The notes beneath the pieces were generated by a model. That model worked only from the letters and a program-made list of their open reading frames with translations, searched no databases and had not been told where the DNA came from. Shown piece by piece: positions 9,189 to 64,000 of a stretch of DNA of 64,000 bases. The position numbers and the translations under genes are program-made. Every line of letters starts with the position of its first letter. The stretch's first letter is position 1. The DNA is from Asparagopsis taxiformis (lineage: Eukaryota; Rhodophyta; Florideophyceae; Bonnemaisoniales; Bonnemaisoniaceae): contig JALQPE010002730.1 in assembly GCA_030407315.1 (NCBI GenBank), positions 1 to 64,000 of the forward strand. Reading direction: 5' to 3'.

Positions 9189-9189
9189 G

Positions 9190-12107: not shown

Positions 12108-13672
12108 ATATGTTTGGGACGCGCGAGATGTGGAGAACGGTGACGATCAAGTTGCTACTTTTCTACCCGACGTGTACACGTTGGCATTGTCTGCTGATGA
12201 GGCGACCATGTTGACACGGAATAAGCGTTCGAAGTGTTTGGAGATACGCGACGTGTGTGACGTGTCCGAGTGTATCGATCGCGTTGTTTCAAGTATCGAC
12301 ATTTCAAATTTTGGATATTCGCCATCAAAACTCGCCGTGTCGAATGATCGAAAATATGTCGCTTTCTCCAAGGGATATTATTCTCATAAAGTGCATATCT
12401 ATGACGCAAGCGAAGGAGTTTGGCTGCGCACACTACCAGATGTGAAACAATCGGCGTTGGCTTCAATCGGCTATCAACGAGGAAACTCGGCATGTGATGG
12501 AGCGTCGGGAGATTCTGGTGATTCAGCACGTGACGAGTCACGTGTAAAAATTGATTCATTGTGGTTTAGCGCAGATGGGTCCACTATCTCTGTTGTCGCA
12601 AATGTTGAGATACGGGGAGAAGATGGTAAGAGGACTTGGATGAAGAGCAAACCCATATGCTGGAATGTGTGTTCAGGAGCAGTCCTGGACGAGGCACAAG
12701 TTGACGGCGAGACGAATCCATCGAACAGCTCTTCCAGCTCGGGAATGAATTGTGGAGAGCAATCTTCTGCTCTCAGCATTGATTCGCATGACAAGGTGAG
12801 GTGTGAGCATGACGGCAAATGTTTCACCATAGCCACCCTGGAGAATAGCGCCGATTATTGGCATTACTCCCACACCAAGTCTCGCTTGTGGTTTGCGAAA
12901 GACGATGGAGGTGTATTTCACATCGATCTCATAACTGACAAAAATCAACTCCAATTGTCGGACAATCGCCCTCCTCTCTCACCCCTCCCACAACTCCATC
13001 TACCCCCATCAGAAGACGCGACCAAACACACAGACCGAGACAAGGATACCGAAGCAGAAGAGGTGTATGATGTCTTCATCAGTCATGCCGGCCCCGACAA
13101 GTGGACCATTGCAAAGCCCCTCTACGATCTACTGGTTGCACTAGGCTTGAAAGTGTTTCTGGACACGGCCGAGCTGAAGCCAGGGCAGCATGCACCGCAG
13201 AAGATGATCCATGCAATGCGGACCGCCAAGATTGCTGTGGTGATTCTGTCGCCAGAGTTTGCAGCGAGGAAAATGGACGATAAAGGAACTGATGTGTTTC
13301 CTGGATCGATATAATGCGGGTGGGGAACGGGGAGTGATTATCATTCCTGTTTTCTATCGGCTGACGCTGGCTGAGTGCAGAGATGAGAATTCGCTGTTCA
13401 GCATGGTGGATAAGAATGGACAAAGCGTGTTCATCACGGAGGGCTTTCTGCAGCGAATGGTGCGGGAGGACGAGTACCAAATCAGAGATGTGGTCAAAGT
13501 TCTGCAGTCGCTGAGGAGCGTGACTGGAATCGAGAATAGCGAGGGGGTGACGAATGGGACAAGCGCAGAGGAGAAGGAGAAACAGGAAGCGTTTGTGAAG
13601 AGGATAGCGAAAGCGATTGTAGAAGGGAAGGAGAGGCTAGAAACCGGACGTGCAGCTGGTCCTAGCGGCTAA
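12108..13672 (+). pseudogene. NLR gene A: 5'-truncated WD40-TIR fragment with frameshift
   Basis: The sequence joins the family in the middle of the WD40 region. VWDARDVENGDDQVA corresponds to about 20701 in gene B. It runs through the rest of the propeller into a C-terminal TIR domain starting near 13062 (VYDVFISHAGPDKW). The TIR keeps its BB-loop region (DTAELKPGQHAPQ), WTIKELM with the putative catalytic glutamate, and IIIPVFYRLT. An extra A in GAGGAAAATGG near 13268, compared with GAGGAAATGG in gene C, shifts the frame inside the TIR. The protein would end at 13314, and the rest lies in another frame to 13672 (tail RAAGPSG). NB-ARC and everything upstream is missing at about 12105. An ATG at 12130 could start a truncated product, but expression is doubtful. 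Confidence 0.85.
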
Positions 13673-16600: not shown

Positions 16601-17813
16601 TAGGAGTGCTGTAGTCCTTCAGACCGAGAGGCGTGCCAGAGCGTGTAGCAGTAGGCCGCCCAGTAGCGGTCCATGCTAGGCTACTGAGGCTCAACGATAG
16701 AGTGGGATGGTGGGAGGGGAACGAAAGCGACGACTAGGCTACAGAATGGACGCGCCTGTGGGTGGCGCTCCGTCAACAACTTGCCTTCTGGCAGCGAAGC
16801 AGTGTGTTTGCCTCCCGCAGGCCGGCTGCTTTGCACTTGCGCATGCGTAATTCGAGGCTGGATTGCCTCCACATAGTTGGCTTCCAGCTACTGCCCGCCG
16901 GCGCGCTCTCTGCTTAGGTAATTCGCGCGTAGTGCCGCCGAGACTGCGCGATAAACACGTGTCGCGTTCCGGCTGCACGACAATCGTTGTCACCCGGTCA
17001 ATTTCGCGTTTGTGCTTCTACTAGCGCTTGTGAAGTAAAAGTACGTTTTGCGTTCCTTGAAATCCTATTTTTATAAATTGTTGAATTGAGACGGTCTGTT
17101 CAACCTCCACTCGTCCGCCTCAATGTGTGGAGACCTCTTGAGGTATCTGCTTCACTCGCGAGTGGCCACAAGTACCCTTAAGGGTACCCTTCCCAACTCG
17201 ACGTGCTCGATAAACCAGACAGCGCGTCCAGTCGCTACAATTTCCGCCATTTGGCGCCGTGATTTCTTCAACTCGAACGACTCTCAATCAGCCCCCTTGA
17301 TCCAGTCACAATACATCTGTGTAAATTCATCCAAGTGTATACGCCCAGCCAGTAGCAATGCACTATTTCGCCTATCCACGCACAATATTTGGACACGTGG
17401 ACAAATCGAAACTTACGATGGATGGTTTTCACTTTGATAACAATGCAGCACCTCTGCTCAATGCTTCTACGGAACACATTACCATCCGTCTCAGAGATAC
17501 CAAGCCAGCTCTCTCACAGCCATTGTGCAAACTGCGCGTCAACGTCAAACGATTTCCACCATCCGACTCCTCCACTCTCGCATTATCGAACCGCTCCCTG
17601 CCACTGTTTCCCACCTTGCCTTTCCATCCGCTCCGCCCATCTGCCGTCTGTGTCCATAGTTGGCAATCTTCTTCGAGTTTTCTCTCCGCCCGCTTGTTAA
17701 ACGTGCAAACCCATCGCTTCCACCCACTCCTCTCCATCTGTTCCATCATCCACCATCCCAATCCACTTTCTGATCCTCTTTCTCCCCTCTTCTCTCCACA
17801 CACTTGTCTAGCC
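13673..17813. other. Intergenic region between genes A and B
   Basis: About 4.1 kb without a recognisable gene. Open frames are short and lack domains. A segment near 14365-14425 (CCACATGT.TGGTGTGACTT.GAGGTTGTACGAG) resembles 58945-58990 in the flank of gene F, so parts are old copies of the NLR-flanking module. A transposon-end-like word is listed at 16585-16622. A TATAAA-type word near 17071 lies about 740 bp before the chosen start of gene B, too far to call its promoter with confidence. Confidence 0.5.
16585..16622 (-). repeat. Transposon-end-like word, copy 1
   Basis: The reverse complement contains GACTACAGCACTCCTACCCC, which also occurs in direct orientation at about 28767-28793. The two copies face opposite ways 12 kb apart. 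They may be ends of small DNA transposons. Confidence 0.5.
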
Positions 17814-20800
17814 ATGAGCAATTCCCGTGCCATATCTAACCGCTCCAACTCCAATCCTGTCGCTGTCTCCAGTACATCGTCACCTCACCAGTATCCTCAA
17901 TCCACCCACTCTGACCGTCCGATACCTCGATCTCCCGCCGAAACTCCTACCGAAACTCCTGCCGAACCTCCCGTCATATCCCCCACACCACCTGCTTCGT
18001 CCGAACCGCCGACTGCACCCCCGCCCCCACATCCGTCTCCATTCCAATCATCTCCTCCAACTACTTGCCTTGTTCCCAACATTGGACCCGTTACAAACCC
18101 TGCTTTCAACGTCCCCTCCGCCGAAGATGCCATACTTGACTTCCTGCCAGACTCAAACTCGCCAGAGAATATGACCTATCGACATCTTTTGTCTGATGAT
18201 GGCACAAAGAAAAGCATTGCTCTCTATGGTATGGGGGGCGTGGGCAAATCCACGATCCTGTGCGCCCTCGGAAGGAAAGACGAAATCAGGTATACATTCA
18301 AAGACGGTGTGTGGTTGTTTCGACTCGATCATGACATCACGATGGCGTCGTTCATTCACCAGCTCGAAAGACTAGTCAAAATTGTACTTCCAGACTTTTT
18401 GGAAGACTTCATGGAGCTAGCTACCTCTGAGGATTCGTACCCCGATATGATCACCGAACTCACAAACCGTCTGGCGCAGAAGCGTTTGCTGCTGCTCTTC
18501 GATGACGTTTGGGATATCAATTCAAGGGTGTACAAGTTGGTGTGTGCCATGTGCGAAACGGTGCAAAGAAGTGTGAGGACTCCAATGAAAGTGTTGTCTT
18601 CCACGCGCTATGGGGACGTTGCAGATGTCCTCACACGGGACAGTTGCATCCAAGTCAATCCACACCCTTCTGAATCTGACCAAAATCTCCGAATCTTTTG
18701 TCTCAAGGTGTGCATGAAACCTTGTGATATCCCATCTCTTTCTTTTGACAATCGAAACGCCCTAGACCATATCCTCAGCACATGTGGAGGACTGCCGCTC
18801 GCACTGAGCGTTGCTGGATCTGCAGTGAAGCAGTTGATGATACCAGGCTCCAATCACTGCGACTACAATGCAATCAGTGCGTTCTGGGGTCGTTTGCAAC
18901 GGAATACCAGACGACTTGCACAGGCAGAAGTCGGAGATGGGCACAGTGGCTTAGCATGTGCACTGGAGACGAGTCTAGAGTTTGTGGAGGAGAAATGGGA
19001 GTCGGAGAAGGAAGCAGACGAGATCGAGGATGAGCTGAGAGCCGGAGAGATGTTTGCATCATTATGCATTATGCAGAAGCAGATGTGTCTGCCGGTGAGT
19101 GCGATCAAGAAGCTATGGGGTGTGAGGGAGGCGGAGGCTGGAGTGAGAATGTTATCACGAAACAGCCTTGTGTCTGAGGTTCGAGACGAGAACAAGATTA
19201 TTGTTGGAGTGGATGTGCACGATTTAGTGCTTGACATGAGTATGGAGATGGCGAAGAGCGGGGGTGGATCCGCAAAGTGGCACGCGAGGCTGCTGGATGG
19301 ATATCGGAGATCATTGAATAGAAGCGGAGGGGCGGAGGATGGTGGTGAGGATGAAGGGGTGGAATGGTGGAATCTAGATAGCAATGACAAGTACATCGTT
19401 GATAATGTAGTACGGCACCTACTCGGTGCTGGAGAGGCTACCGAGGCGCTGGGACTGCTCACCGACTATCGGTGGGTGGAGCGAATGAATGAGGACGAGG
19501 ACCGTGCTCCATTCCAGAAGGTCATTGATGAACTGCAGCTGTTGCAATCGTATATAGTGCAACACAAGAAGACGATGGGGAAGAATGTAGCAAGGGATAT
19601 TGAAGTTATAGTCAAGGCGATGGTACTGTGCATGGTACCGTATTGTATGAAGAATCGGGAGGAATGTCGATTCCAGTTGTTTGGACGATTGCGAGACGTG
19701 AAAAGCGAGAGCGGTATTGTAGAGCGGCTAGTGAGTAGTATCGAACGGTATGGGCGTATACCCTGGGCCCGAGCTGGGCCTGGGGTGTTGCGTAGTCGAA
19801 GAAGTATGCTGCAACGTGTGCTAGACGTTGAGGGATATGGAGATTGCATGTGTATTGTCGCGGGAGGAGAGGAGGTGGTTGTGGGAGGGAGGAATGGGAA
19901 GGTGGGGGTGTACAATGGGTGGGATGGATCGAAGAAGTCGCTCGTCGGACACGAAGAAGAAGAGCGCGTAGTGGATGTGCACTATGTCCGTTCGTCAAGC
20001 AGGATATTTTCGTGCAGTTCAAGAGGAAGGGTAGTAGTATGGGAGGAGTACAAGATGTGCTATTGTGTCCAGGCCGAAGGATTGCAAGAAGATGAGGAGA
20101 TCTTGTGCATGGAGGTATTACCGAAGCGAGGGAGAGTTGTACTTGGAACGAGCAAAGGACGACTGTTGGTGATGGACATAGAAGGCGAGGGCACATGTTC
20201 TCAGAATGCATTCCAAACTGTCGATGCGCATGACAGGTATGTGACATCGCTAACAGCAGGACCGAGTGAAGATTTTGTAGTGTCTGGATCGAGAGACCGA
20301 AGGATTCGGGTATGGGACGCGGAGAATTTCTCCGACATCGCAAATGAGTTGGAAGGGCACGAAGATTCGGTGAACAGCGTAGCGTTAAGTGGTAATGGGC
20401 GACTGCTGGCATCCGGATCGTTGGATGGAACGCTACGACTATTCGATATGGAGAGACGCGAGCAACTATGGTCGTCTTCTACTGCTCATGACGATTGGGT
20501 GAGTTGTGTTTTGTTCAGCGTTGATGCAAGTTTGTTGTATTCTTCAGATGAAGGCTGTACGATACATGTTTGGAAACTGAGCGGTGATGGTCAAAACGTG
20601 TCACTGTTGCGTACGCTCTGCCATTGGACAATGGGAGATATCCGATCGCTGTGCATTGGAGATGAGTCGGAATTGTTCGCGCTGACCGAAAGGCAAGTAC
20701 ATGTTTGGGACGCGCGAGATGTGGAGAACGGTGACGATCAAGTTGCTTCATTTCCACCCGACGTGAACACATTTGCATTCTCTGCAGATGAGGCGACCAT

Positions 20801-21587
20801 GTTGACATGGAATAAGCGTTCGAAGTGTTTGGAGATTCGCGACGTGTGTGACGTGTCCGAGTGTATCGATCGCGTTGTTTCACGTGTCGACATTCCAAAT
20901 TGTGAAGATTGGCCATCAGAATTCACCGTGTCGAATGATCGAAAATATGTCGCTTTCTCTTCGGGTGGGGAATCTTCTGCAGTGCACATCTATGACGTAA
21001 GCAAAGGGGTCTTGCTGCGCACACTATCAGATGTGAAACAATTGGCGTTCGCTTCAATCAGCAATCAACAAGGAAACTCGGCATCAGATAGAAGGTCGGG
21101 GGATTCATTGTGGTTCAGCGCAGATGGGTCCACTATCTCTGTTGTCGCAAATGTTGGGCTATGGGGAGAACATGGTAAGCGGACTTGGGTGAAGAGCAAA
21201 CGCATGTGCTGGAATGTGTGTTCAGGAGCAGTTCTGGACAGGTCACAAGTTGACGGCGAAACGAATGCATCGAACAGCTCTGTCAGCTCGGCAACAAATT
21301 CTGGAGAGCAATTTTCGGCTCCCAGCGTTTATCCGGATGGCGTGGTGAGGTGTGAGCATGACGGTAAATGTTTCGCCTTAGCCACCCCGGAACATGGCGT
21401 CAAATCTTGGTATTACTGCTGCGATACGTCTCGCCTGTGGTATGCCAGTTGGAGTGGAGGTGTATTTCACATTGATCTCATAACTGACAAAAATCAACTC
21501 CAATTGTACGACAATCGCCCACCTCTCCCACCCCTCCCACAACTCCATCTACCCCCATCAGAAGACGCTACCAAGCACAAAGACTGA
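17814..21587 (+). CDS. NLR gene B: NB-ARC-WD40 protein, TIR cut off by stop codons
   Basis: Predicted 1257-residue cytosolic signalling ATPase. Order: a Pro/Ser/Thr-rich N-terminus (about 1-110); NB-ARC with P-loop GMGGVGKST (about 140), Walker B LLLLFDDVWD (about 223), STRYGDVAD, GLPLALSVAG (about 324) and an MHD-like VHDLVLDM (about 468); the hinge KYIVDNVVRHLLGAG; a helical linker; and WD40 repeats from about 670 to 1225 with units ending IRVWD, LRLFD and IHVWK. The start at 17814 is preferred because gene C keeps the same surrounding sequence (CACTTGTCTAGC). An in-frame ATG at 17358 would add 152 residues of composition unlike the family. The stop replaces an Arg codon of gene C (CGA to TGA), and a second stop follows two codons later. 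The NB-ARC half resembles that of gene F. As written it is a propeller NLR without its TIR effector, either a decaying gene or a TIR-less regulator. Confidence 0.85.
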   Translation: MSNSRAISNRSNSNPVAVSSTSSPHQYPQSTHSDRPIPRSPAETPTETPAEPPVISPTPPASSEPPTAPPPPHPSPFQSSPPTTCLVPNIGPVTNPAFNVPSAEDAILDFLPDSNSPENMTYRHLLSDDGTKKSIALYGMGGVGKSTILCALGRKDEIRYTFKDGVWLFRLDHDITMASFIHQLERLVKIVLPDFLEDFMELATSEDSYPDMITELTNRLAQKRLLLLFDDVWDINSRVYKLVCAMCETVQRSVRTPMKVLSSTRYGDVADVLTRDSCIQVNPHPSESDQNLRIFCLKVCMKPCDIPSLSFDNRNALDHILSTCGGLPLALSVAGSAVKQLMIPGSNHCDYNAISAFWGRLQRNTRRLAQAEVGDGHSGLACALETSLEFVEEKWESEKEADEIEDELRAGEMFASLCIMQKQMCLPVSAIKKLWGVREAEAGVRMLSRNSLVSEVRDENKIIVGVDVHDLVLDMSMEMAKSGGGSAKWHARLLDGYRRSLNRSGGAEDGGEDEGVEWWNLDSNDKYIVDNVVRHLLGAGEATEALGLLTDYRWVERMNEDEDRAPFQKVIDELQLLQSYIVQHKKTMGKNVARDIEVIVKAMVLCMVPYCMKNREECRFQLFGRLRDVKSESGIVERLVSSIERYGRIPWARAGPGVLRSRRSMLQRVLDVEGYGDCMCIVAGGEEVVVGGRNGKVGVYNGWDGSKKSLVGHEEEERVVDVHYVRSSSRIFSCSSRGRVVVWEEYKMCYCVQAEGLQEDEEILCMEVLPKRGRVVLGTSKGRLLVMDIEGEGTCSQNAFQTVDAHDRYVTSLTAGPSEDFVVSGSRDRRIRVWDAENFSDIANELEGHEDSVNSVALSGNGRLLASGSLDGTLRLFDMERREQLWSSSTAHDDWVSCVLFSVDASLLYSSDEGCTIHVWKLSGDGQNVSLLRTLCHWTMGDIRSLCIGDESELFALTERQVHVWDARDVENGDDQVASFPPDVNTFAFSADEATMLTWNKRSKCLEIRDVCDVSECIDRVVSRVDIPNCEDWPSEFTVSNDRKYVAFSSGGESSAVHIYDVSKGVLLRTLSDVKQLAFASISNQQGNSASDRRSGDSLWFSADGSTISVVANVGLWGEHGKRTWVKSKRMCWNVCSGAVLDRSQVDGETNASNSSVSSATNSGEQFSAPSVYPDGVVRCEHDGKCFALATPEHGVKSWYYCCDTSRLWYASWSGGVFHIDLITDKNQLQLYDNRPPLPPLPQLHLPPSEDATKHKD

Positions 21588-21908
21588 GACTAGGATACCG
21601 AAGCAGAAGAGGTGTATGATGTCTTCATCAGTCATGCCGACCCCGATAAGTGCACCATCGCAAAGCCCCTCTACGATCTACTGGTTGCACTAGGCTTGAA
21701 AGTGTTGCACTACAGAATGGAGGAGATCATGGATGCTCTACAAGCGGTGACTGTATTGACGGGGATCGAGAATAGGGATGGGGTAACGAATGGGGATAGC
21801 GTTGAAGAGGTCGCTAAGCGGGAGTATGTCGAGAGTATCGGGGGTGCGGTCGAAAAGGCGAATGGGCGATTGGAGAGCGGACGAGCTGCTGGACCAAGCG
21901 GTTCGTAA
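21588..21908 (+). pseudogene. Orphaned, core-deleted TIR tail of gene B
   Basis: In the same frame as gene B beyond its two stops. It reads VYDVFISHADPDKC...LLVALGLKVL, then jumps to HYRMEEIMDALQAVTVLTGIEN and the family tail RAAGPSGS. Compared with gene C, about 310 bp (roughly 104 codons) are missing in frame. The missing part includes the BB loop, the WTMRELM helix with the catalytic Glu, and the IIPVFY strand. Read-through would still give no active TIR enzyme. Confidence 0.85.
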
Positions 21909-24030: not shown

Positions 24031-24032
24031 CA

Positions 24033-25448: not shown

Positions 25449-25556
25449 CGTAGTGGGGGAAGAAAACGTAGGGAAGAATTGGAAAGAGTAGAAGGTATCT
25501 GATGGGAAGCTGTGCTTGTGCAGAGAAGATTTGAGTCGATGAGTGGTAACTGGTAG

Positions 25557-27961: not shown

Positions 27962-28262
27962 TCATCCACGTCCACTACTAGGACCTGCAGCCCACCCACT
28001 ATCCTCACGATTCTTCGCTTCTACCACAGCGCCCCGGGTCCTCCCAGCAAATTGCATTTGCCCCGCTTTCTCCTCTTCACCTTTCCCATTCGTCACTTTC
28101 GCCTCGTTCTCGATACCAGTCACTCCCCTCAGCGACTGTAGAACTTGTAGCACATCACGTACTTCATATTCCCGCTCACCCACCATTCGTTCCAGAAACC
28201 CTTCAGCCACAAACACATTCTCTCCCTTGTCGTTCACAGCAGCGAATTTTCGTTTTTTAGTT
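27962..28262 (-). pseudogene. C-terminal TIR relic of a D/E/F-type NLR
   Basis: The minus strand encodes NDKGENVFVAEGFLERM, LQSLRGVTGIENEAKVTNG and the tail AAGPSS of the D/E/F family. Similarity stops near 28262, just after a match to the SLFGAVNDKG region. The catalytic TIR core and all upstream domains are gone. It sits where a complete minus-strand gene would converge on gene B, as D converges on C. Confidence 0.85.
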
Positions 28263-31034: not shown

Positions 31035-31045
31035 CCCCCGCTCCC
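31035..31045 (-). other. Polypurine-tract-like sequence of the retroelement
   Basis: GGGAGCGGGGG on the minus strand, two bases before the 3' LTR. Confidence 0.6.
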
Positions 31046-48508: not shown

Positions 48509-49295
48509 ACTAGAACTTAAACACCCGGCTTAGAGAAGGAATTGATGGAAGCCTTGTCATATGTTGTGGCGAGGGGTGGTCACGGTTGTCCACATCGTAG
48601 GTAACGCGACTTGGTCGAGATTGGGAAATCCGAATAAATCCAGCTCCGCCCAATTCCGGATTTACCGCCGCCGCCGGTGGGTACTGTAATGATAGCTGTA
48701 ATTAAATGACGACATGCAATGAACTTCACGTGACTGAGCTGCCTCGTACGCACCGGTGCATATTCCCTATCCCCGGAACGACCGGTGTTGCGCCTGCGCC
48801 GCTCCAGTGGCATACCCATGGCAACAAATACCACCAAACAGCTTTGAGTTCCTTCGTTCACTGCGCATCGGCGTGCTCAAAACCACACTGACAGCCCTGC
48901 TTCAACGACCGGCATTGTGCCTGCGCCGCTCCAGCAGCATACCCACCACCGAAAAGCTTTGAGTTACTGCGTTCGCTGCGCACCGAGACGCACAAACACA
49001 ACCACACTGACAGTCCTGCTTCTACATTCATGCAAACTGCTGCAGATACGCTGGAGCTGATCACACTGATGCTCAATTCCGTGAACGCCACTTCACAAAT
49101 ACGCACACGGCTTCCCTGCTCCTACATTCCGAAACGAAAGCTTCCGCACTTTTCTTTGTGCTCTTCAATTGGATAACAAGCACTGCGCAAACGTCCAAAC
49201 TGTCCTCCCTGCTGTTGCCCACGCTGCACACTACCGCCCGCACATTGATAATCGTATTGATCTTTGTTTATGGAACGGCCACATGATCCACACAC
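48509..49295. repeat. MULE left terminal inverted repeat
   Basis: 787 bp; pairs with 52153-52939. Weaker similarity continues to about 49306. Confidence 0.9.
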
Positions 49296-49569
49296 TGACA
49301 TTGCTGGTTATGGATCAAGGAAGATAGAATGTTGTTGGATTCAATACATTTCAGATGTGCTTGAAGCCGTCGGTTCCAGGTACTGGTATTGAATGATAGA
49401 GAAGCGGAATTTAGGTTGATTCATTGGTTTGGAAAGGGTAACAGGCCCTGATATGGAATGAATAGACGAAGGAAACAATTCCGCGATGTGCTGATCCGGT
49501 TATTGTGTCATGCCATGCCATTGCATAGCATGGGTGGATAGCGAACAGAGAGGGAACTTTAATGGTTTA

Positions 49570-52134
49570 TTAGGGAAGATTGAGGACATCCTCGTTTTCC
49601 CATGTCCGTGGTGCACCACGTGCATTAAGATTTCTTGACACTCTATCATGGTACGTTCTGTAGCGCTGCAAAACACGGAAAAGATGGTCAATTTGGCGGC
49701 TTCCAGACTCATTTTCTGATAAATCACGGACGTGTTTGATGCCCCAAGCGAAAAGATCTTGTAACTTTCTAGCTGTATCGGTGGGCTGTAGCTCTTCCGT
49801 ATCGCGTGATCTAGAAACAATTATACCTGGTACAGCATGCGCAGCATGAACAGATGTAGTTGCGGATGTACCAATTTGGGCTGTTTCAATTGAATTTTCT
49901 TCACCCGTATGCAGTGAATTCTGCTTTTCTTCACCTAGAATTGTCGCTCTATACCTGTTCTCAACCCTTTTAAAACTGAGAAACGGAGGAGATCTACTTC
50001 GTACGACATCACGGTAGTTCGGACAGGTCATTCCGGAAGTCAAGTGCTTGCACAGAAAAAATCGGCTATGTAGAAAACCTTCACATGTACATGTCCATCG
50101 CAGTCTGTTAGTAATGTGATTTTTTGTGAGGGGAATCGAACATAGACGATTCCATTCACTGACAAAGTGCCTCCACCATACAGGCTTCTTAATACCCGAA
50201 CAGAGAAGCTCAAAGTCAGCGGAGAATCGGGGGAGAACCACTACGGATAGAATGTAAACTAAAAAGTCACATTTTGGCCGATTGTAGGGTAACAAATATA
50301 CGCGTTTCAACCTTGACCAATGCGCTTCCACCATCATTTTGGTCCGGGCAATTGGGATAACTTGATTGTGTCGCCTTCCCCACAATTTGAAAACGTCATC
50401 CGAATACCAATTGCATAGTAAATATGAAATCATCCCAAAATCATCACTTCCTTCCCACAATCTAGCTATCTCAATTCTTGCGTCTGCAAGACCTGACTGA
50501 ATACGTAACTCAGGTTGAAAAGAAGAATGCATGTTGTAGTGTCTAGTGACTAGTTGCAGTATCCTCATCTCCTTTTCCCTCAGTTCCCTATGGCCATCTC
50601 TACAGATAGCATTGATTTTCCGCCGTATTGCTTGCTTCATGTGCCACAAACATATCGATGGCAGAAGTTCGAAAGCTGTTTTGATAGCACCGATCTGCCC
50701 CAAATCTTTGTCTGTAAAGAAAAATGATGGGCGCAGATCGGGGATTGTAGATCGCACAGCAGCGAGGAATTGAGTGATAGATTGTAGCCTGGTCCGGTTG
50801 CATTCGATACTTCCTGCCTCTAACAAGAGGTAAGCGATCGGGAACCCAACGCCCAGAACTGAACCGATCACTGCAAACAACTCTAATTTTGTAGAGTTAG
50901 TCTTGTATGTTGAATCAATAAACGCCTCGATTATGTTCCATTTCTCGCATATCTCTTTTCCAATCGACGTTACCATCCCAAGTGCGAAAGGAGAAGTTAA
51001 TTGCAAAACCAATTCCAAATTTTCAGCACCAGATACAAACGCTAGAGCAGATTCCTTAGGATCTGCACTGGTACGAAATTGAGAGGCTACTGTCTCGCTC
51101 CAGACATTATATATGTTCATGTATGCGAAGGGAGTGCCAAACATATTTCTAATCCGAACAGATATTTGGAACGGAGACAAACCCAAATTGGTCAGATCCC
51201 TGATGGCTTTCCGGACATTTTCTGTCATTGCAATGACTTTCTGAGGGCTTTCATGGCAAAGCCCATGTGTAACTGTAACTTTTAAGCGCCTCTGCTTTCC
51301 ATAGCATACATTTACAGAGCCCTCACAGCCATACTCTTTCTTAGAAGTCCTTCTCCTCTTTTTGCCTTCCCGGTCACTCGCATACTGACTCTTACGTCTG
51401 TTTTGCAGCTGGCTGCATATCCAACGCGTCGATGTGCATTTCATCTTGTTAGCAATGTAGCTATATCCGTCAGCACCTTTCAAAAGTGCAATTAATCCCG
51501 TCTCCACTTCTCTGCGCTCTTCCTCCGAGCTAAAATCAGCTACCATTCCAAGCACAGAGCGAGATCTCCAGCTGTAGTAAACACACTCTATTGGCCATCG
51601 CAGATTCCTAGCTGCAGCATGATTGTAACTATGCCATGCTGCAATCGCCTCTCCTCCAGTTCTACAATCATCCAAATCCCCACAAAAGTATATTTTTTGG
51701 GGTATTTCATCAACAATACATGTCCTCCTGCATTCATTGCAATGTGCACTGATTGAGAGCTCATTGGTTACAAACTGGATGCTCTGCTTACGTTTCAAGC
51801 ACTTTGAGCATTTACAACAGAACAAGCTTCTTGCTTCCGTCACTGCTACACTTTTGTCAACAACAAAAGCCTTTAATGACCAAAAAACATTCTCATCTAC
51901 AACGTATTCTTCAGAAGAGAATAGCTCTTCGATGCTGGACTCCACCGACTCCAATGGTAATGCATAGGCTTCAGAAAAATAGAAAGCAACATCTTCAACA
52001 GTTGGAAACTCATTACCGAATGCGTCATGATATATTTCTTTTGCGTTGTCAAATGTGTTGGAGAGTATTTCATTGTCTCCCTCGAAATTGCTCTCTTCAA
52101 TTGCCATTTTGCTGTCTATACCTCCTATTACCAA
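49570..52134 (-). CDS. MULE transposase
   Basis: 854 residues. An N-terminal cysteine-rich part (CCKCSKCLKRKQ and CNECRRTC, about 100-140) looks like a zinc-binding DNA-recognition module. A basic segment (KKRRRTSKKEYGC) follows. The MULE-type DDE core has FIDSTYKTN (first Asp, about 405), SFFFTDKDLGQI (second Asp, about 472) and CLWHMKQAIRRK. A SWIM zinc finger (CTCEGFLHSRFFLCKH, about 683-698) follows, as in Mutator transposases. The frame is uninterrupted, so the element may be autonomous. The ATG lies about 20 bp inside the right terminal repeat, so transcription probably starts within the repeat. Confidence 0.92.
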   Translation of the reverse strand: MVIGGIDSKMAIEESNFEGDNEILSNTFDNAKEIYHDAFGNEFPTVEDVAFYFSEAYALPLESVESSIEELFSSEEYVVDENVFWSLKAFVVDKSVAVTEARSLFCCKCSKCLKRKQSIQFVTNELSISAHCNECRRTCIVDEIPQKIYFCGDLDDCRTGGEAIAAWHSYNHAAARNLRWPIECVYYSWRSRSVLGMVADFSSEEERREVETGLIALLKGADGYSYIANKMKCTSTRWICSQLQNRRKSQYASDREGKKRRRTSKKEYGCEGSVNVCYGKQRRLKVTVTHGLCHESPQKVIAMTENVRKAIRDLTNLGLSPFQISVRIRNMFGTPFAYMNIYNVWSETVASQFRTSADPKESALAFVSGAENLELVLQLTSPFALGMVTSIGKEICEKWNIIEAFIDSTYKTNSTKLELFAVIGSVLGVGFPIAYLLLEAGSIECNRTRLQSITQFLAAVRSTIPDLRPSFFFTDKDLGQIGAIKTAFELLPSICLWHMKQAIRRKINAICRDGHRELREKEMRILQLVTRHYNMHSSFQPELRIQSGLADARIEIARLWEGSDDFGMISYLLCNWYSDDVFKLWGRRHNQVIPIARTKMMVEAHWSRLKRVYLLPYNRPKCDFLVYILSVVVLPRFSADFELLCSGIKKPVWWRHFVSEWNRLCSIPLTKNHITNRLRWTCTCEGFLHSRFFLCKHLTSGMTCPNYRDVVRSRSPPFLSFKRVENRYRATILGEEKQNSLHTGEENSIETAQIGTSATTSVHAAHAVPGIIVSRSRDTEELQPTDTARKLQDLFAWGIKHVRDLSENESGSRQIDHLFRVLQRYRTYHDRVSRNLNARGAPRTWENEDVLNLP

Positions 52135-52152
52135 TGTACTGCAGCAATATCG

Positions 52153-52939
52153 GTGTGTGGATCATGTGGCCGTTCCATAAACAAAGATCAATACGATTAT
52201 CAATGTGCGGGCGGTAGTGTGCAGCGTGGGCAACAGCAGGGAGGACAGTTTGGACGTTTGCGCAGTGCTTGTTATCCAATTGAAGAGCACAAAGAAAAGT
52301 GCGGAAGCTTTCGTTTCGGAATGTAGGAGCAGGGAAGCCGTGTGCGTATTTGTGAAGTGGCGTTCACGGAATTGAGCATCAGTGTGATCAGCTCCAGCGT
52401 ATCTGCAGCAGTTTGCATGAATGTAGAAGCAGGACTGTCAGTGTGGTTGTGTTTGTGCGTCTCGGTGCGCAGCGAACGCAGTAACTCAAAGCTTTTCGGT
52501 GGTGGGTATGCTGCTGGAGCGGCGCAGGCACAATGCCGGTCGTTGAAGCAGGGCTGTCAGTGTGGTTTTGAGCACGCCGATGCGCAGTGAACGAAGGAAC
52601 TCAAAGCTGTTTGGTGGTATTTGTTGCCATGGGTATGCCACTGGAGCGGCGCAGGCGCAACACCGGTCGTTCCGGGGATAGGGAATATGCACCGGTGCGT
52701 ACGAGGCAGCTCAGTCACGTGAAGTTCATTGCATGTCGTCATTTAATTACAGCTATCATTACAGTACCCACCGGCGGCGGCGGTAAATCCGGAATTGGGC
52801 GGAGCTGGATTTATTCGGATTTCCCAATCTCGACCAAGTCGCGTTACCTACGATGTGGACAACCGTGACCACCCCTCGCCACAACATATGACAAGGCTTC
52901 CATCAATTCCTTCTCTAAGCCGGGTGTTTAAGTTCTAGT
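52153..52939. repeat. MULE right terminal inverted repeat
   Basis: 787 bp, inverted copy of 48509-49295; likely carries the transposase promoter. Confidence 0.9.
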
Positions 52940-52948
52940 AAGAAATGC
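52940..52948. repeat. Target-site duplication of the MULE, right copy
   Basis: AAGAAATGC, identical to 48500-48508. Confidence 0.92.
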
Positions 52949-52955
52949 ACCGACC

Positions 52956-53141
52956 GAATCGTCGCTGTAGACGACTGGTCGCGAATTCCAGACTTGTATT
53001 TGACGACCACCCAACATGAACAATTCCGGGCCGTCTCCCAGACCGAACGAATCGTCGCTGTAGACGACTTGTCGCGTATCCCAAACTTGTATTCGACTAC
53101 CACTCATTATGAATAGTTCCGGGCCGTCTCGCAGACCGAAC
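52956..53141 (-). repeat. 93-bp in-frame tandem duplication in the WD40 region of E
   Basis: GAATCGTCGCTGTAGACGAC recurs at 52956 and 53049. Each unit encodes about 31 residues (VYSDDSFGLGDGPELF...VW..R). D and F have a single unit. Confidence 0.85.
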
Positions 53142-55939
53142 GAATCGGAAAATGAAGTTGAAATGGGGAGTGTGTGCGCCAGTGACACGTCACGACCACC
53201 GTTCCCCACCCGCCATACCCTTGTTCCTCTGAAGTTCACAGAATACAACAAGCGTTCATCGGCACTGAAGAGCACACAATGCCCAGGATTGAGGTCTTTG
53301 GAAGGTGATGTCCACAGTTGCTCGCCACTCTGCACGTCCCAAAGCCCAATGTTTCCATTGTTCGACGCTGAGGCCAGTAGTCTCCCATCAGCGCTCAACG
53401 CCACGCTGACCACATATTCTTCGTGCAACTCGAACACAGTGCCGCTGTCGTCGAAGCTTGTCGTATCCCATGCACGAATCGTCCCATCCCACAATCCAGA
53501 AACCATCACAGTTTCGCTTCCTCCGATTGCCAGCGATTTCACTCCTTTCCCGTGCACGTCGACAGTTCGAACTACTCTCTCGCTCGTTGCATCAAGGACC
53601 AGTAGTCGCCCTTTATAAGTTCCTAGAACCACTTTCTTCGACGACAGTAATACTTGCATACAAGAGATCTTCTCTTCTTCGTCTTCTACAGCTTGCATCG
53701 ATTGCAACTTCTTCTCGTCTTTCCAGATTATCACTTCTCCTCGTAAATTGCATGAATACATCAACCCTGAAATGCGGTCGAAAAACACAGCGACGATCTC
53801 ACTATCTTCTTTCCCAGCCAGCGTCCTCTTCAACGTCCCATCTTGACTATCCAACACCCATACCTCCCCCCTCCTCCCTCCCACAAACACTTCCTTCCCT
53901 TCCCCACTCACACACATGCATGTTCCACGACTCTCCACATTCAGTTCACGTCGCAATGGGCTCCTCCCACTCTCCAGCACCTCAGGTCCACAACGAACCC
54001 AAGGCCGCTCCGCATATCTCTCAATACTATATACTATTCGCTCTACCAACCGACTCTCGCTCTTGACATCGCGCAGTCGCCCAAATAGTTGAAAAGTACA
54101 TTCTTTTCGATTCTCTACGCAGTACGGCGCCATGCAACGCTCCATTGCCCTCATGACAACGTCCAGATCACGGACTACTCTTCTTCCAACCGATCTCTTC
54201 TCTTCTTCTTCTTCTTCTAAATGCCTTCGAACCAGTTCCAGCTCGCCAATGACCTTCTGGAACGGCGGTCGCTCTTCATCCTTATTCATCTTCTCGGTCC
54301 ATCGATACTCCGTCAACAGTTTCAATGCCGCACTCACCCGCCCAGCTCCGAGCAGGTGTCGCACAATGTTCTCGCTCATGTACTTCTCCTTCTTCAGTTC
54401 CCACCATTTGTCAGCTGCACTCTCATTGTCCTCTGCATGATCTCCAGCTGCCCCTTGACTTGTCCGTAGTGATCCCCGGTACCGATCCACGAGCCGGCTA
54501 TGCCACCCTCGTACCCCCTCCTTCCCCTCCGCCATTTGGACACACACGTCGTGGACAAGATCATGAAGTCGGATCCCCCTCACTAGCCCTCCCTCCTCTT
54601 CGTCCAGTGATACTAGACTGTGTCTCGAAAACATCCTCGCCCTTGCTAGCCCATCGTCTACGCCCCACATCTTCTCGATCACACACAATGGAACACACAT
54701 CTGCTTTTCCATTACGCAAAACGATCGAAACATCTCTCCCACCCCCATGCTCTTCCCCTTCCACCCTCTCTCCAGCGACCCTAAGCTCGTCTGGATAGCT
54801 GCATCCAGCCCCCCATGTCTACGACCACTCTCTGCATCACGAAGTTCTACACTACTCCGCTTCAGACTCTCCCAGTATTGCACAATTGCATTCGGCCCAC
54901 TCGCATCTGTGCATCGACCATTCACTTCTTGCATCCCAGATCCAGCTACACTCAGTGCCAGTGGTAGTCCTGCACATAGGTCAACAATGTTCTCCAGTGC
55001 ATCACGATTGCCCGATGACCACGACACAAGCCTGGTACAGTCGATCCCAGCATACCCGCACAGAATTGCGATGCATGTCTCCCTACGCACATCTCCAGGA
55101 CTCACTCCAATTGACACATCATGCGTAGGTACACGACCTATCGCCTCATTCCTCGTCGACGTCAGCACCTTGCAACTTCCTCCATCCATTTCCTGGACAC
55201 CTTTGCAGGTAATGTCTACCAACTTGTAGACAATGGAATCGAGATCCCACATGTCGTCAAAGATGAGGAGAAAGCGCTTCGAACCGAGCAGGTCAATTAG
55301 CTCCTCCATCATGTTGGAATGAGTGTCGTCATTTGCAGTGAGTTTAGCGAATTTGGGGAGGAAATCTGGGAATGCTTTAGCGACAATCTGCTTCAGCTGG
55401 TTCAACAGCCTCTGCACTTTAGCGTCGTGACCGAGTTCAATGAACCACACGCCGTCTGGGAACCTTTGCCAAACATCTGCACGTCTGCCGAGGGCGCGCA
55501 GGATGGTGGTTTTGCCTGCACCACCCATGCCGACGAGAGCTATGGCGTTATTGTTTGGGTCATCGGACAGGAGTGCGTGCTTGGCCTTGCTTTCTGGAGT
55601 GCGGGAGTCATTGGAGAAGTCTAGGACAATCTGGCGGGAGTTTCGGGGGACGTAGAAGGCAGCGGGCTGTGGGGTACGTGATGGTTGGGCGGGAGACAAT
55701 GCGGGAGTGGAGTGGGGAAGCGGGTGAGATGGGTGGGACACTGGATGAAGTGGGGAAGATGGTGGGGATAGCGACGGTGGAGAGGACTCGATGGGCGCGG
55801 AATCGGATACGGCGGGAGAGTCAGAGGTCGTTTGATGGGCGTGGTCAGATGTAAGGACAGGATGGGGCGGTGGAGTGACAGTGTTGGAGCGGGCGGAGTT
55901 GGGAACAGGGTGGTCTGGTTGAGAGAGGAAATGACCCAT

Positions 55940-56480
55940 GGTACTAGAAGTGTGCGCGGAGGGAAGACAGAGGAGATTGTTAGTCGGCGAGCTGAATGGT
56001 ACGGACGGAGAAGCAAGGATGGAGGTGGTGGACGTATGGACGGTACGGGAGGGGAAGAGTTGCGAGTCGAGAAGTGGAGGAGTGGTGTGCGCTGTGTGCT
56101 GTAATGATCTGAGGTAGGGCGTTACGCGGTGTTGCTGCGAGGATGGTATGGAGAGCGAAGTGACAAAGCGAAAGAGGATGGATCGATTCGGAAAGTTGAA
56201 GTAGCTAGTGGGGAGAAGATTGTTAGTCGGCGAGGCGAATGGTACGTGCAGAGGAAAGGATGGAGGAGTTGGACGATGGGCGTATGGACGGTTGGAGCGC
56301 GGAAGAGTTGCGAGTCGAGAAGTGGTGTGTGCTGTGAGGAGAATGAGGTGCGGCGTTGTGGTGCGCTATGCGGTGTTACTGCAAGTGTTGTGCGGAGAAC
56401 GAAGTATCGGAGCGGAAGCAGATGGATCGATGCCAACAATTAGTCAGCAAGACGTGAGACGGGGAACGGAATAACGCCTT
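55940..56480 (-). promoter_or_regulatory. 5' flank of gene E with two imperfect tandem blocks
   Basis: Copies of the 42491-43100 blocks, starting near 55981 and 56221. Probable promoter region; no core element identified. Confidence 0.4.
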
Positions 56481-59625: not shown

Positions 59626-62600
59626 CTACCGTGCACTACTAGGACCTGCAGCCCGCCCACTATTCTGACGATTCTTCGCCTCCACAACAGCGTCTCGGAT
59701 CTTTTCGGCTAATTGCATTTGCGCCGCTTTCTCCTCTTCACTTTCTCCATTCGTCACTTTCGCCTCATTCTCGATACCAGTCACTCCCCTCAGCGACTGT
59801 AGTTCCTGCAGTACCTTCTCGATCGTCAGCTCCTTCTGCTTCGACATCCACTTCAAAAACCCTTCAGCCAGAAACACATTCTTTCCCTTATCGTTCACTG
59901 CATCAAACAGCGAATTCTCGTCTCGACAGTCGTCCAGTGTCAATCGGTAGAACACCGGAATAATGATTATCTCTCTATCGCCGCCAGCACGGAATCGCTC
60001 CATAAAGCACATCAACTCCTTCAGCGTCCATTTCCGCGCAGCATACTCTGGCGACAGTATCACAACTGCAATCTTCGCTGTTCGCATCGCCTTGATCATC
60101 TTCTCGGGTGCATTCTCCCCGGGCCGCAGCTCTGCCCGGTCTAGAAACACCTTGAAATCAAGTGCGACGAGTAGGTTGTACAACAGCAATGCGATGGTGA
60201 ACTTGTCGGGGCCGGCGTGGCTTATGAAGACGTCGTATACTTGATCTGGTTCGGAATCTGTGATTGTGTGCTGTGGTGGGGGTGGATGAGGTTTGAGGAG
60301 TGAAAGAGGAGGTGGGTTGCGTGGCGGGAGTTTGGTGTTGTCAGTGATTAGATCCACATAACACATACCCCTGTCATGTATTGAAATGTGTAATCGGGAA
60401 GCATCAGAGATATAATGGGCTCCATACACATAATCCTCCATGGTGGCTATAGTGAAAGACGATTGGCCGTGTTCGTACTTGACATTTCGTGGAAATCGGA
60501 AGAACCATCCGTCAAACTCCGCATTGCAGACCAAGCGAGGGGATGGTGTGCTACTCGTTGCGGTACTATCGGCGTCCAGATGCGTTTCGTCCATGGGTTC
60601 TCCTGACGATATATTCCAAGACACAGACTTTGTTACGACAGTCGTCGCATTGTCGTCATTTGGGTTTGGGTTTGCGGCTGCGAAAGCTGAAATAACCGTA
60701 CTGTCTGAACTGAACGACAGTATTCCAGCTTCTCGGAAAGGTCGAACTCCTGCCGTGTTATTCAAATGACTGCAACTCGTCAGAATTGATGCGTCATCCT
60801 GTTCATGACGTGTCAACGACAACGCCCATTTATCAAGATCAAAGAGCGAGTGCAAAACATTTCCATTCCGCGCGTCAACGATGTGAACAACACAACTACC
60901 ATCAATAGAATAGGCGACGAATCGCTGGTTGTTTGATATGGCCAGTGAGTCTGGGGGATGCCAACTATCATAAACGGGTATTTCGAAACTGGAAATGACG
61001 CGATCGATGTGATCACACACGTCACACACGTCGCGTATCTCCATCCGTTTCGAACTGCGATTCAACGTCACCATTGTTGTCCCATTCTCGGAAACTCCAA
61101 ATCTCCTGACCTGCTGAAGAAATGCACCGGACGAATCGTCGCTGCAGTCGACTTGTCGCGCATCCCAAACCTCTACTCGATCGCCTCTCAATATGAATAG
61201 TTCTGGGCCGTCTCCCAGATCGAACGAATTGAAAAATAAAGGTGACGAAATAGGGAGAGTGTGCGCCAGTGACACGTCACGACCACCGTTCCCCACCTGC
61301 CATACGTTTGTTCCCTTGAGGCCCACAGAATACAACAAGCGTTCATCGCTACTGAACAGGACACAAACCACAACATTGTGATATTCGTGAGGTGATGTCC
61401 ATAGTGGCTCACCACTCGGCACGTCCCAGAGCTGAACGCTTTTGTAATCCGACGACGACCCTGAGGCCAGTAGTCTCCCATCAGCACTCAATGCCACACT
61501 GGTCACCCATCTCGTGAGCCCCTTGAATACAGCGCCACTGTCGTCGAAGCTTGTCGTATCCCATGCACGAATCGTCCCATCCCACGATCCAGACACCATC
61601 ACAGTTTCGCTTCCTCCGACTGCCAGCGATATCACTCCAGCAGAATGCGCAGCGACAGTTCGAACTACTCCCCCGCTCGTTGTATCAAAAACCAGTAGTC
61701 GTCCGTCAGTAGTTCCTACAATCACTTTCTTCGACGACGGTAACACTTGCATACAACCGATCAAATCTTCTTCGTCTCCTACTTCGGCTTGCATTGATCG
61801 CAACTTCTTCTCCTCTTTCCAGATTGTCACTTGTCCTCTTCCACTGCATGAATATATCAACCCCGAAGTGCGGTCGAAAAACACACCGACGATAGCACCA
61901 TCTTCTTCTCTAGCCAGCGTCCTCTTCACCCTCCCATTTCGACCATCCAACACCCATACCTTCCCCCTTCCCACTATCACTTCTTCCCCTCCCCCACTCA
62001 CACACATGCATCGTCCCTCATCCTCCAGCTCCAGTACACGTCGCAACGAGCTCCTCCCATTCGTCAACACCCCAGGCCCACAACGAGCCCAAGGCCGCTT
62101 CGCATATCTCTCAATACTACATACTATTCGCTCTACCAACCCACTCTCGCTCTCAACATCGCGCAATCGTCCAAATAGTTGAAACGTACATTCTTCTCGG
62201 TTCTTCATGCAATACGGTACCATACAAAGCTCCATTGCTCTTGCAACAACGCCCAAATCATGGACTATTCTTCTTCTAGTTTCCGTCTTCTCTCCTAAAT
62301 GCCTTCGTACCAGTTCCAGCTCGCTCATGACCTTCTGGAACGGCGCTCGCTCTTCGTCCTTATTCATCTTCTCGACCCATCGATAATCCGTCAACAGCTT
62401 CAGTGCTGCACTCACCCGCCCAGCTCCGAGCAGGTGTCGCACCGCGTTCTCCCTCATGTACTTGTCATCTTTCTTCAGCTCCCACCATTCGTTTTCTTTC
62501 ATATCCCTCTCTCCATTGCTTCCATTTGCCGACTCCACGTATGCATCCACTAGCCTCCCATGCCACTTCTCCACTCCACCTTCTCCCTCACTCATCTTCA

Positions 62601-64000
62601 CACTCATATCCAGCACCAAATCGTGCACCCCCACTCCCACAATCCCTTGGCCCTCCTCACAAACTTCGGATACTAGACTGTTTCGTGACAACATCGTCAC
62701 TCCAGCCTGCACATCTCCCACACCCCACATTCGCTCAAGCACACTCACCGGCACAATCATCTGCTTCTGCACAATGCACAGCGATCGAAACATGTCTCTA
62801 GCACTCAGCTCATCTGCCAGTTCTTCTGTGCTCTTTAACGACTCCCACCTCTCCTCCAGAAACTGCACACTTGTCTCCACTGCACTGGTCAGGCCAGGGT
62901 GTCCTCCTCGTTCGGCACCGCCGAGTTGTCGAGGCTTCGTCTTCAATCGCCCCCAGTACACACTGATGGCACTCTCGTCACACCGACCCAGCCTCCGGTC
63001 CATCGCCTGCCTCACTCCAGAGCCAGCAACACTCAGGGCAAGCGCCAATCCAGCACACGTTTCGATAATGCAGTGCAGCGAGTGCTGGTTCTCAGCAGAG
63101 AGCGACGGGACATCGGAGGTATCGATTTTGGCATTGCGGCAGAATATAGCAAGCGCCTTTTCCGCGTCCAATTCCTCGGGATTGAGTGGTACTGTGACGT
63201 CTGCAAGATCATCGGCCATATCACTGCTCCGTGTCGATGTCAGCATTTTCAACAAACCATTGTCATTGCATTGCACCACATTGCACATCACACACACTAA
63301 CTTGTACACACTCGCATTGGTATCCCAGACATCATCAAAGAGCAACAGGACATGTTTGGTCACGAGGTGCTTCATGAGTTGGGTGACCATTGTGCGGTGC
63401 GTGTGCTCGGAAGCGGCCAGTTCAGTGAAAACTTTTGAAAATTCTGGGAGTGTGGATTTGACAAATGCTTGTAGTTGCTGGACAAAGGAGGAGAGCGTAA
63501 CGTCGTGACCAAGTTCAAAGAACCACACACCGTCATGGTATTTGCCATGACCTCGCCGTCATTGCCAAGAGCGCACAGGATGGTGGTCTTGCCTGCGCCG
63601 CCCATGCCGACGAGTGCGATAGAGTTTGTCGATGGATCGTCGGACAGAAGGGCGCGCTTCACAGCACTCTCGGGGGTGGTGGAGGACGGTGACAGGTCGA
63701 GTATGGGTCGCTGGATAGGTGGGACGTAATGGGATCTTTGGACGAGGTGCACCGGTGGAGCAGAGTGTGGGGGTTGAGCAGTAGAGTGTGTTGGGGAAGA
63801 ATGTGGTGACGGTGAGGACGTCGGGAGTGTTAACGAGACGGGCAGTGCGCAGACTGGTGCTGGTGTGGAGGATGAGGCGGGGGAGTCGGTGGTCAGTTGA
63901 GGCGTCGTTTGAGGTGTGGGTTGGTTTGTGTCGCTAGAAACAGGAGCATTGGAAGACGGTGGGGTGGAGGATGTGGGATTAGGAACGGAAGAGTTTGGTT
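59626..64000 (-). pseudogene. NLR gene F: NB-ARC-WD40-TIR, frameshifted at the P-loop, 5' end outside the window
   Basis: A Pro/Ser/Thr-rich N-terminal frame is open from the window edge through SIALVGMGGAGKTTILCALGN (P-loop about 63578-63607). Near 63545 one base appears to be missing: the frame becomes NTMTVCGSLN, while KYHDGVWFFELGHD lies in the next frame. That second frame stays open for 1300 codons (63528-59626): LLLLFDDVWD, GLALALSVAG, an MHD-like VHDLVLDM, RHLLGAG, the WD40 repeats, and an intact TIR (VYDVFISHAGPDKF from about 60240; WTLKELM; IIIPVFYRLT; tail AAGPSSAR). The NB-ARC half is closest to gene B, the rest to D and E. If the single-base difference is a sequencing error, F would be a second complete gene. 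Confidence 0.88.

What the first reader, a model, noticed from the sequence alone, without database searches (positions are those of the whole stretch)
12108..64000. Cluster of NB-ARC-WD40 proteins with a C-terminal TIR domain
At least six copies share the order Pro/Ser-rich region, NB-ARC, helical linker, WD40, TIR. Plant TIR-NLRs carry TIR at the N-terminus with LRRs, and Apaf-1 has CARD-NB-ARC-WD40. Here an Apaf-1-like chassis ends in a plant-like TIR with BB-loop (RPGENAPE), WTLKELM and IIPVFYRLT, including the glutamate position used for NAD cleavage. Clustering, copy decay and shuffling look like an immune-receptor arms race. I cannot say whether the architecture has been published.
Basis: partly seen in the sequence, partly recalled or inferred. 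Interest (0 to 1): 0.78.

Follow-up and report, generated by a model that had tools for sequence, protein, structure and literature searches.

The report
Red-algal receptors with TIR at the end
A red seaweed carries dozens of immune-receptor-like genes built on the plan of the animal cell-death protein Apaf-1 but ending in a plant-type TIR enzyme domain, whereas the named relatives examined carry that domain at the front.

Summary
The window most likely comes from a red alga. Gene D (38120-42490, minus) is one open frame with NB-ARC, helical region, WD40 propellers and C-terminal TIR. Its predicted chassis matches Apaf-1 best in the PDB and its TIR matches plant TIRs best; the putative catalytic Glu is present in 46 of 46 collected TIR segments. 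Genome-wide, the TIR lies downstream in 44 of 44 same-frame NB-ARC/TIR pairs. Red-algal proteins with these modules are in print (Chondrus: PMC7145615, PMC9806590). But the TIR is N-terminal in all 14 Chondrus NB-ARC proteins and the one Gracilaria protein retrieved, and in every bacterial or metagenomic relative with both domains detected. The C-terminal order is a distinct variant whose chassis forms one clade (100/99). Function, a NADase immune receptor possibly on a membrane, is inferred.

The parts
38120..42490 (-). Gene D, coding frame from first ATG (42490) to stop: MG start, P/S-rich segment, NB-ARC, helical region, WD40 propellers, Pro-rich tether, TIR
   Evidence: Pfam; ATG position; model, Apaf-1 best match
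42473..42490 (-). Gene D N-terminal MGHSFS, myristoylation-like start (prediction only)
   Evidence: control
41528..42187 (-). Gene D NB-ARC (Walker A GMGGAGKTT, Walker B LLIFDDMWD, GLPLA, HD of the MHD motif)
40535..41509 (-). Gene D winged-helix and APAF1_C-type helical region (aa 391-715)
   Evidence: mostly helical in model; PF17908 sub-threshold (0.0016) in paralogue C, over cut-off in the Gracilaria relative
38930..40522 (-). Gene D WD40 propellers (aa 720-1250), the most variable folded part of the family
38315..38731 (-). Gene D TIR domain; putative catalytic Glu codon GAG at 38510-38512 (E1390)
12076..13666 (+). Copy A: 3' part only (last WD40 part + TIR), frameshift near 13271
17325..21905 (+). 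Copy B: 1420-aa NB-ARC-helical-WD40 frame ending at 21587; TIR core (D aa ~1353-1455) missing between the TIR start and its tail
29719..34650 (+). Copy C: all domains but in three frames (interruption flanked by a near-identical 77-bp stretch, 30904-30980 and 31262-31338; frameshift near 32284)
47006..56365 (-). Copy E: all domains, split in the WD40 region by a MULE; open on haplotig C2620 (L065)
48509..52939 (-). MULE element in copy E: 798-bp terminal inverted arms 99.75% alike (48509-49306 / 52142-52939), MULE transposase domain in frame 49573-52161, 9-bp target duplication AAGAAATGC (48500-48508 / 52940-52948)
59626..63998 (-). Copy F: all domains, frameshift near 63545, 5' end cut by the window edge; likely counterpart on haplotig C2620 is a 1591-aa frame
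27968..28285 (-). TIR C-terminal remnant (D aa 1414-1519)
4023..4169 (-). Short TIR fragment (D aa 1332-1380)
42771..42920 (-). Short copy of D's 5' flank (D frame aa 5-53, upstream of the first ATG)

Best explanation
The window holds a cluster of a large, fast-evolving family of red-algal STAND-type intracellular immune receptors. Shown by computation: an Apaf-1-like chassis (NB-ARC, winged helix, helical domain, WD40 propellers) fused in one frame to a C-terminal plant-type TIR whose putative catalytic Glu and binding-loop Gly never vary in 46 collected segments; lower dN/dS in TIR and NB-ARC than in the propellers; exchange of TIRs between paralogues; a C-type chassis clade distinct from the N-terminal-TIR relatives. 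Inferred mechanism: the propellers hold the protein closed with ADP; a pathogen or damage cue binds the propellers; nucleotide exchange lets NB-ARC domains form an apoptosome/resistosome-like ring; the TIRs, each on a Pro-rich tether of about 40 residues at the rim, meet and become an active NAD hydrolase, giving signalling nucleotides or NAD loss and defence or cell death. Further inferred: many members are N-myristoylated (some perhaps also palmitoylated), so that the ring would assemble on a membrane, a job open to the N-terminus because the TIR is not there.
Against: No expression, protein or NADase data for this species. dN/dS above 1 is rare (4-6% of WD40 pairs, none elsewhere), so positive selection is not shown. 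The EDS1_EP search found nothing but its control was silent too, so a plant-like downstream arm was not tested. TM-scores to Apaf-1 and Dark are low (0.30-0.45 by query or target length, rmsd 15-24), so the arrangement of domains in the model differs or is unsure. APAF1_C is below Pfam's cut-off in the window's own proteins. Five of 19 readable N-termini, one of them in a fused frame, lack the MG motif, and so do C-type relatives P0051, P0055 and P0062. Eight of 55 long NB-ARC frames have no TIR in the same frame. Four of the seven Pyropia NB-ARC+WD40 genes do not pass the paper's 1.5-fold mark (PMC6928737).
Confidence: 0.74

Rival explanations
1. Apaf-1-like cell-death executors with a fixed, internal trigger (development, stress), not pathogen receptors; copy number is a by-product of transposon-rich arrays.
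For: Chassis is Apaf-1-like; most pairwise dN/dS values are below 1; five of six copies in the window are broken or lack the TIR core.
Against: 114 NB-ARC and 150 TIR matches scored in 141 Mb, haplotigs included and both lists capped, steepest divergence in the propellers and repeated TIR exchange are unlike a conserved executor.
Confidence: 0.15
2. The TIR is a scaffold only (homotypic adaptor, as in animal MyD88-type signalling) and has no NADase activity.
Against: Best matches are plant TIRs, among them NADP+- and NAD-bound RUN1; the Glu and the Trp before it are present in 46 of 46 segments; TIR dN/dS is 0.20.
Confidence: 0.12
3. Several origins: C-terminal TIRs were added more than once to NB-ARC-WD40 proteins rather than moved once from the N-terminus.
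For: The TIR tree rejects a single C-type clade (AU p = 0.011): TIRs of P0049/P0051/P0055 group with Chondrus TIRs and ROCO-TIRs (98/92).
Against: The chassis of the C-type proteins is one clade (100/99), and TIRs demonstrably change chassis in this genome, which would give the same conflict after one move. Long branches are present in the TIR tree.
Confidence: 0.4
4. Assembly or reading artefact: adjacent TIR genes read as fused.
For: Window copies A, C and F carry frameshifts that could be sequence errors.
Against: 44 same-frame instances, at least three of them haplotig duplicates; P0001, from another source (tag lgn), is 96% identical to L053 and fused in the same way over 1426 aa.
Confidence: 0.02

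Closest known systems
Red-algal TIR-NBARC-WD40 proteins (Chondrus crispus; Gracilaria domingensis)
   Same: Same modules; Chondrus TIRs 45-48% and NB-ARC 23-31% identical to D's (14 proteins); lineage-specific expansion (61 NB genes, 58 NB-WD40, 23 of 58 with TIR in Chondrus: PMC7145615, passage read)
   Different: TIR at the N-terminus in 14 of 14 Chondrus NB-ARC proteins retrieved and in the Gracilaria one, C-terminal here; none of these 15 begins with MG; P0033's propellers hold many near-identical WD repeats, D's match the WD40 repeat model only weakly
Apaf-1 / Drosophila Dark
   Same: NB-ARC, winged helix, helical domain and propellers; first six Foldseek matches
   Different: No CARD seen at the N-terminus; ends in a TIR
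Plant TIR-NLRs (ROQ1, RPP1, RUN1, L6)
   Same: TIR fold and Glu motif, NB-ARC with MHD-like HD motif
   Different: TIR N-terminal and LRRs as sensor in plants (recalled); C-terminal TIR and WD40s here
Bacterial and metagenomic TIR-NB-ARC-WD40 proteins (P0006, P0099 and others)
   Same: Same modules, some with APAF1_C by precomputed Pfam (P0006; P0086, P0114)
   Different: TIR N-terminal in every one with TIR and NB-ARC detected; the NB-ARC/helical part is 23-28% identical in the rows below P0062
SARM1 / TIR-1
   Same: C-terminal NADase TIR on an oligomerising body (recalled)

Membership tests
STAND / NB-ARC NLR-like receptors | NB-ARC with Walker A, Walker B, GLPLA, HD of MHD | tested here: met
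   Walker A, B and HD 20 of 20, GLPLA 19 of 20; Pfam NB-ARC 20 of 20
STAND / NB-ARC NLR-like receptors | Repeat sensor after the NB-ARC | tested here: met
   WD40 models 20 of 20
STAND / NB-ARC NLR-like receptors | Ligand-triggered oligomerisation | not testable with these tools
   needs protein
Apaf-1-like (NB-ARC, WHD, APAF1_C, two propellers) | Fold match to Apaf-1 over the chassis | tested here: met
   Foldseek ranks 1-5 Apaf-1, rank 6 Dark; TM-scores only 0.30-0.45
Apaf-1-like (NB-ARC, WHD, APAF1_C, two propellers) | APAF1_C by sequence profile | tested here: inconclusive
   0.0016, under cut-off, in copy C; over cut-off in the Gracilaria relative; not among the 25 of 29 families shown for D or the 25 of 65 shown for the 20 genes
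Apaf-1-like (NB-ARC, WHD, APAF1_C, two propellers) | N-terminal CARD | tested here: not met
   complete Pfam lists for the N-terminal frames of copies C and F hold no CARD; D's list, cut at 25 of 29, shows none
Apaf-1-like (NB-ARC, WHD, APAF1_C, two propellers) | Caspase activation | not testable with these tools
   needs protein
Plant TNL | TIR N-terminal to NB-ARC | tested here: not met
   44 of 44 downstream
Plant TNL | LRR sensor | tested here: not met
   WD40 instead
NADase TIR domains | Glu in the W..(K/R)EL helix and plant-type fold | tested here: met
NADase TIR domains | NAD+ cleavage | not testable with these tools
   needs assay
Chondrus-type red-algal TIR-NBARC-WD40 | TIR at the N-terminus | tested here: not met
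   Chondrus P0033 aligns to this genome only from residue 223 on (61 matches from 34 scored of 1122 candidates)
N-myristoylated proteins | MG start with small residue at position 6 | tested here: inconclusive
   14 of 19 readable starts (13 by first Met), against 3 of 217 unrelated frames; but His or Lys at position 3 in several, which the recalled PROSITE pattern excludes
N-myristoylated proteins | Lipid attached in the cell | not testable with these tools
   needs labelling

The most novel reading that the evidence does not exclude
One red-algal lineage has turned its immune receptor round: the TIR effector left the N-terminus and lives at the C-terminus as an exchangeable cassette, while the N-terminus became a lipid anchor. 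The result would be a membrane-bound, Apaf-1-shaped ring whose NADase domains sit at the rim and are swapped between paralogues by recombination, so that sensor and effector evolve almost independently.
Probability: 0.35. Interest if true: 0.8.

Novelty: new variant of a known kind. Interest (0 to 1): 0.62.

Why it matters
Models of TIR receptors such as the ROQ1 and RPP1 resistosomes (recalled) place the TIR at the N-terminus, next to the NB-ARC ring. A large family of open, conserved frames with the TIR at the far end of the propellers asks whether that placement is needed for TIR activation. It also shows an effector domain exchanged between diverging sensor chassis, and it offers a concrete test: a domain-order swap between the Chondrus type and this type.

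Tried and rejected
Rejected: fusion artefact; identity with Chondrus crispus (the 61 matches of P0033 in this genome are 27-38% identical); N-terminal TIRs also present in this genome (0 of 44 same-frame pairs; no match of P0033 reaches its TIR, though TIRs alone match at 42-52%). These lists are capped, so a few N-type genes cannot be excluded. Not settled: C69:31091-34264, the best relative of P0033 (335 bits), has no TIR in the lists or 100 and could not be fetched.

Led nowhere: EDS1_EP search (own genome silent, control silent too). VIA-align of the chassis filled its list with single propellers, mostly G-beta, and does not bear on Apaf-1. The protein search over D residues 130-1500 scored only the 7986 candidates sharing most words and listed no Chondrus protein; the TIR-only search did. 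Gao et al. 2018 (10.1104/pp.18.00185) is not held, so whether it mentions TIR position is unknown to me. PMC8866957, listed for 'C-terminal TIR', was seen in the listing only.

Searches behind 'not described': (open-licence PMC only; no preprints).

Full report
What is there. The window is contig C2602 of a 141.5-Mb, 3156-contig genome. The genome gives 13 matches to the phycobilisome linker family; with a eukaryote-sized genome and nearest named relatives in Chondrus and Gracilaria, a red alga is the best reading. It is not Chondrus crispus: the 61 matches of the Chondrus protein P0033 are 27-38% identical. The species is not identified.

Gene D (38120-42490 minus) is a single open frame. Pfam gives NB-ARC, propellers and TIR in that order. 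I fetched 20 NB-ARC loci, chosen for open frames of 1261 aa or more. Of these, 18 have all parts in one frame and two (L050, L055) lack the TIR in frame. Those 18 plus D and the haplotig copy of E (L065) make the set of 20 intact genes used below; all 20 match NB-ARC, WD40 and TIR models. In the tables (114 scored of 414 candidates; 150 of 315), 44 of 44 same-frame NB-ARC/TIR pairs have the TIR downstream. At least three of the 44 look like haplotig duplicates by equal score and length (C2602/C2620, C680/C961, C107/C934). Of 55 NB-ARC frames of 1250 aa or more, 44 have a TIR in frame, and adds three (C1968:54776, C367:33796, C2866:30078). Eight remain without, among them copy B of the window.

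What is known. PMC7145615 (passages read) counts 61 NB genes in Chondrus crispus, 58 with WD40 and 23 of 58 with TIR. PMC9806590 (passages read) writes of 'TIR-NBARC-WD40' in Chondrus and says that these TIRs are not orthologous to plant TNP TIRs. PMC8891106 (passages read) reports NB-ARC, WH-like and APAF1_C/WD40 proteins in rhodophytes. PMC6928737 (passages and table read) lists seven Pyropia NB-ARC+WD40 genes, three of them induced in red rot. PMC11378527 (passages read) reports TPR-ROCO-TIR in Chondrus. PMC8307928 and PMC10834447 (passages read) add nothing on TIR position. None of the passages gives a C-terminal TIR on an NB-ARC-WD40 protein. Gao et al. 2018 could not be read.

The end of the protein is the news. 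Of the 120 homologues show both a TIR and an NB-ARC by my profiles: 58 have the TIR N-terminal and 8 C-terminal. The 58 include 14 named Chondrus proteins and the Gracilaria protein P0044; the rest are bacterial, metagenomic or unnamed. The eight C-terminal ones bear only the source tag lgn; one of them, P0001, is 96% identical to L053 of this genome. Two further Chondrus proteins (P0053; P0057, which its source names 'NB-ARC protein') do have a C-terminal TIR. My NB-ARC profile finds nothing in them; Pfam shows a Roc domain (P0053, P0057), so they are ROCO-type. In a tree of NB-ARC plus helical region the C-type proteins form one clade (100/99; 53 rows after 13 near-copies were dropped; 96 by SH-aLRT with all 66 rows). 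The 19 bacterial or metagenomic rows, a selection of mine, form another (100/100). Three Chondrus proteins (P0032, P0038, P0042) were not put into the trees. The TIR tree does not follow: holding the C-type TIRs together is rejected (AU p 0.011; P0062 and 12 bacterial rows were dropped before that test). So either the TIR moved once and was later exchanged, or C-terminal TIRs arose more than once. Since bacterial and other red-algal relatives are N-type, the C-terminal place is most simply derived, though the trees were rooted at the midpoint only.

TIR exchange. L056 and L062, genes on the same contig C2479, differ in the chassis (dS 2.0-2.4; 37-67% of bases alike in 50-codon bins) but share a TIR (dS 0.02; 97-100%), with the change at residue 1300. 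L046 and L048 are the reverse: chassis dS 0.09-0.25, TIR dS 1.83. L060 is a mosaic: closer to D up to about residue 550, closer to L045 after it. Median pairwise identity falls from TIR 0.68 through NB-ARC and helical region 0.53 to 0.46 and 0.38 in the two WD40 parts. Median dN/dS is 0.20 (TIR), 0.35 (NB-ARC), 0.32 (helical), 0.50 and 0.61 (WD40 parts) (pairs with dS 0.02-0.8). Pairs are not independent.

N-terminus. In 14 of 19 intact genes with a readable start, the first Met (in L054 the second) is followed by Gly, with Ser or Ala at position 6 (MGHSFS, MGKCFS, MGNCFA, MGSCCA, MGCCFS, MGNCCA and so on); P0001, P0002 and P0061 have it too. L056, L058 (a fused frame), L060, L061 and L062 do not, and L063 lacks the region; P0051, P0055 and P0062 do not, and P0029, P0049 and P0060 look incomplete. 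In 217 unrelated open frames of the same loci, taken by first Met, the pattern with any of S,T,A,G,C,N at position 6 occurs three times; by that rule the family counts 13 of 19. The control frames are mostly not genes and the family members are related, so no probability is claimed. None of 22 N-type proteins begins with MG; P0059 among them is incomplete. Myristoylation, with palmitoylation where Cys follows, is inference.

Decay in the window. Copy E is split by a MULE (48509-52939) with 798-bp arms 99.75% alike and a 9-bp target duplication. The haplotig piece L065 has the same gene without it, 99.6-99.7% alike on both sides. The likely counterpart of F on the same haplotig contig is a 1591-aa frame, so its frameshift here is a polymorphism or a sequence error. 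B has lost the TIR core but keeps a 1420-aa chassis frame. A and C are broken.

Mechanism. Most likely the propellers sense, the NB-ARC switches and assembles, and tethered TIRs meet and cleave NAD+. Every step after the domain content is inferred from Apaf-1 and TIR-NLR biology (recalled). The C-terminal place means that the TIRs would start at the rim of an Apaf-1-like ring rather than on its hub; between the last propeller strand of the model (about aa 1278) and the TIR (aa 1317) lie about 40 residues rich in Pro.

Changes on re-checking: GLPLA is 19 of 20; the myristoylation row is now 'inconclusive'; TM-scores now include Dark; counts are tied to capped lists.

Noticed in passing
window 48509-52939: Young MULE with 798-bp terminal inverted arms (99.75% alike) and 9-bp target duplication, present in this haplotype and absent from haplotig C2620.
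   Followed up: yes
L066, L067, L068 (Amoebophilaceae MAG); P0052, P0058: With the two peptide patterns, the only loci of the prokaryote genome collection that encode this TIR (36-45% identical) lie in one Amoebophilaceae (Bacteroidota) MAG. P0052 and P0058, named Bacteroidota MAG proteins, have TIR with NB-ARC and TPR, and with P0054 their TIRs lie among red-algal ones. Gene transfer or contamination.
   Followed up: partly
P0053, P0057 (Chondrus crispus): Roc-domain proteins with a C-terminal TIR; P0053's TIR nests among Chondrus NB-ARC-type TIRs, so TIRs seem to have moved between NB-ARC and ROCO proteins. No COR-A match in this genome.
   Followed up: partly
L034:1222-2658; L057:1-1563: Frames in which NB-ARC (L034) or helical region (L057) runs into the TIR without propellers, perhaps deletion products; L035 has the same pair of domains in two frames.
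   Followed up: no
window 24033-25619 (-): 528-aa frame with, by eye, a signal-like N-terminus and a repeated Cys-rich unit; no Pfam match.
   Followed up: no
window 10267-11133 (-): DDE_1 transposase domain (9.8e-11).
   Followed up: no
window 40-6158 and 8886-9194: Inverted repeats (for example 861-1545 against 4165-4853, 98%) and a 43-bp tandem repeat of about 7 copies.
   Followed up: no
window 25970-26047, 30904-30980, 31262-31338: A 77-bp stretch occurring three times (92-99% alike), twice flanking the interruption of copy C.
   Followed up: no
P0033, P0035, P0036, P0047, P0048, P0050 (Chondrus): Basic stretch SRKRRKI before the TIR, resembling a nuclear localisation signal by eye, in contrast to the MG start of C-type proteins.
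   Followed up: no
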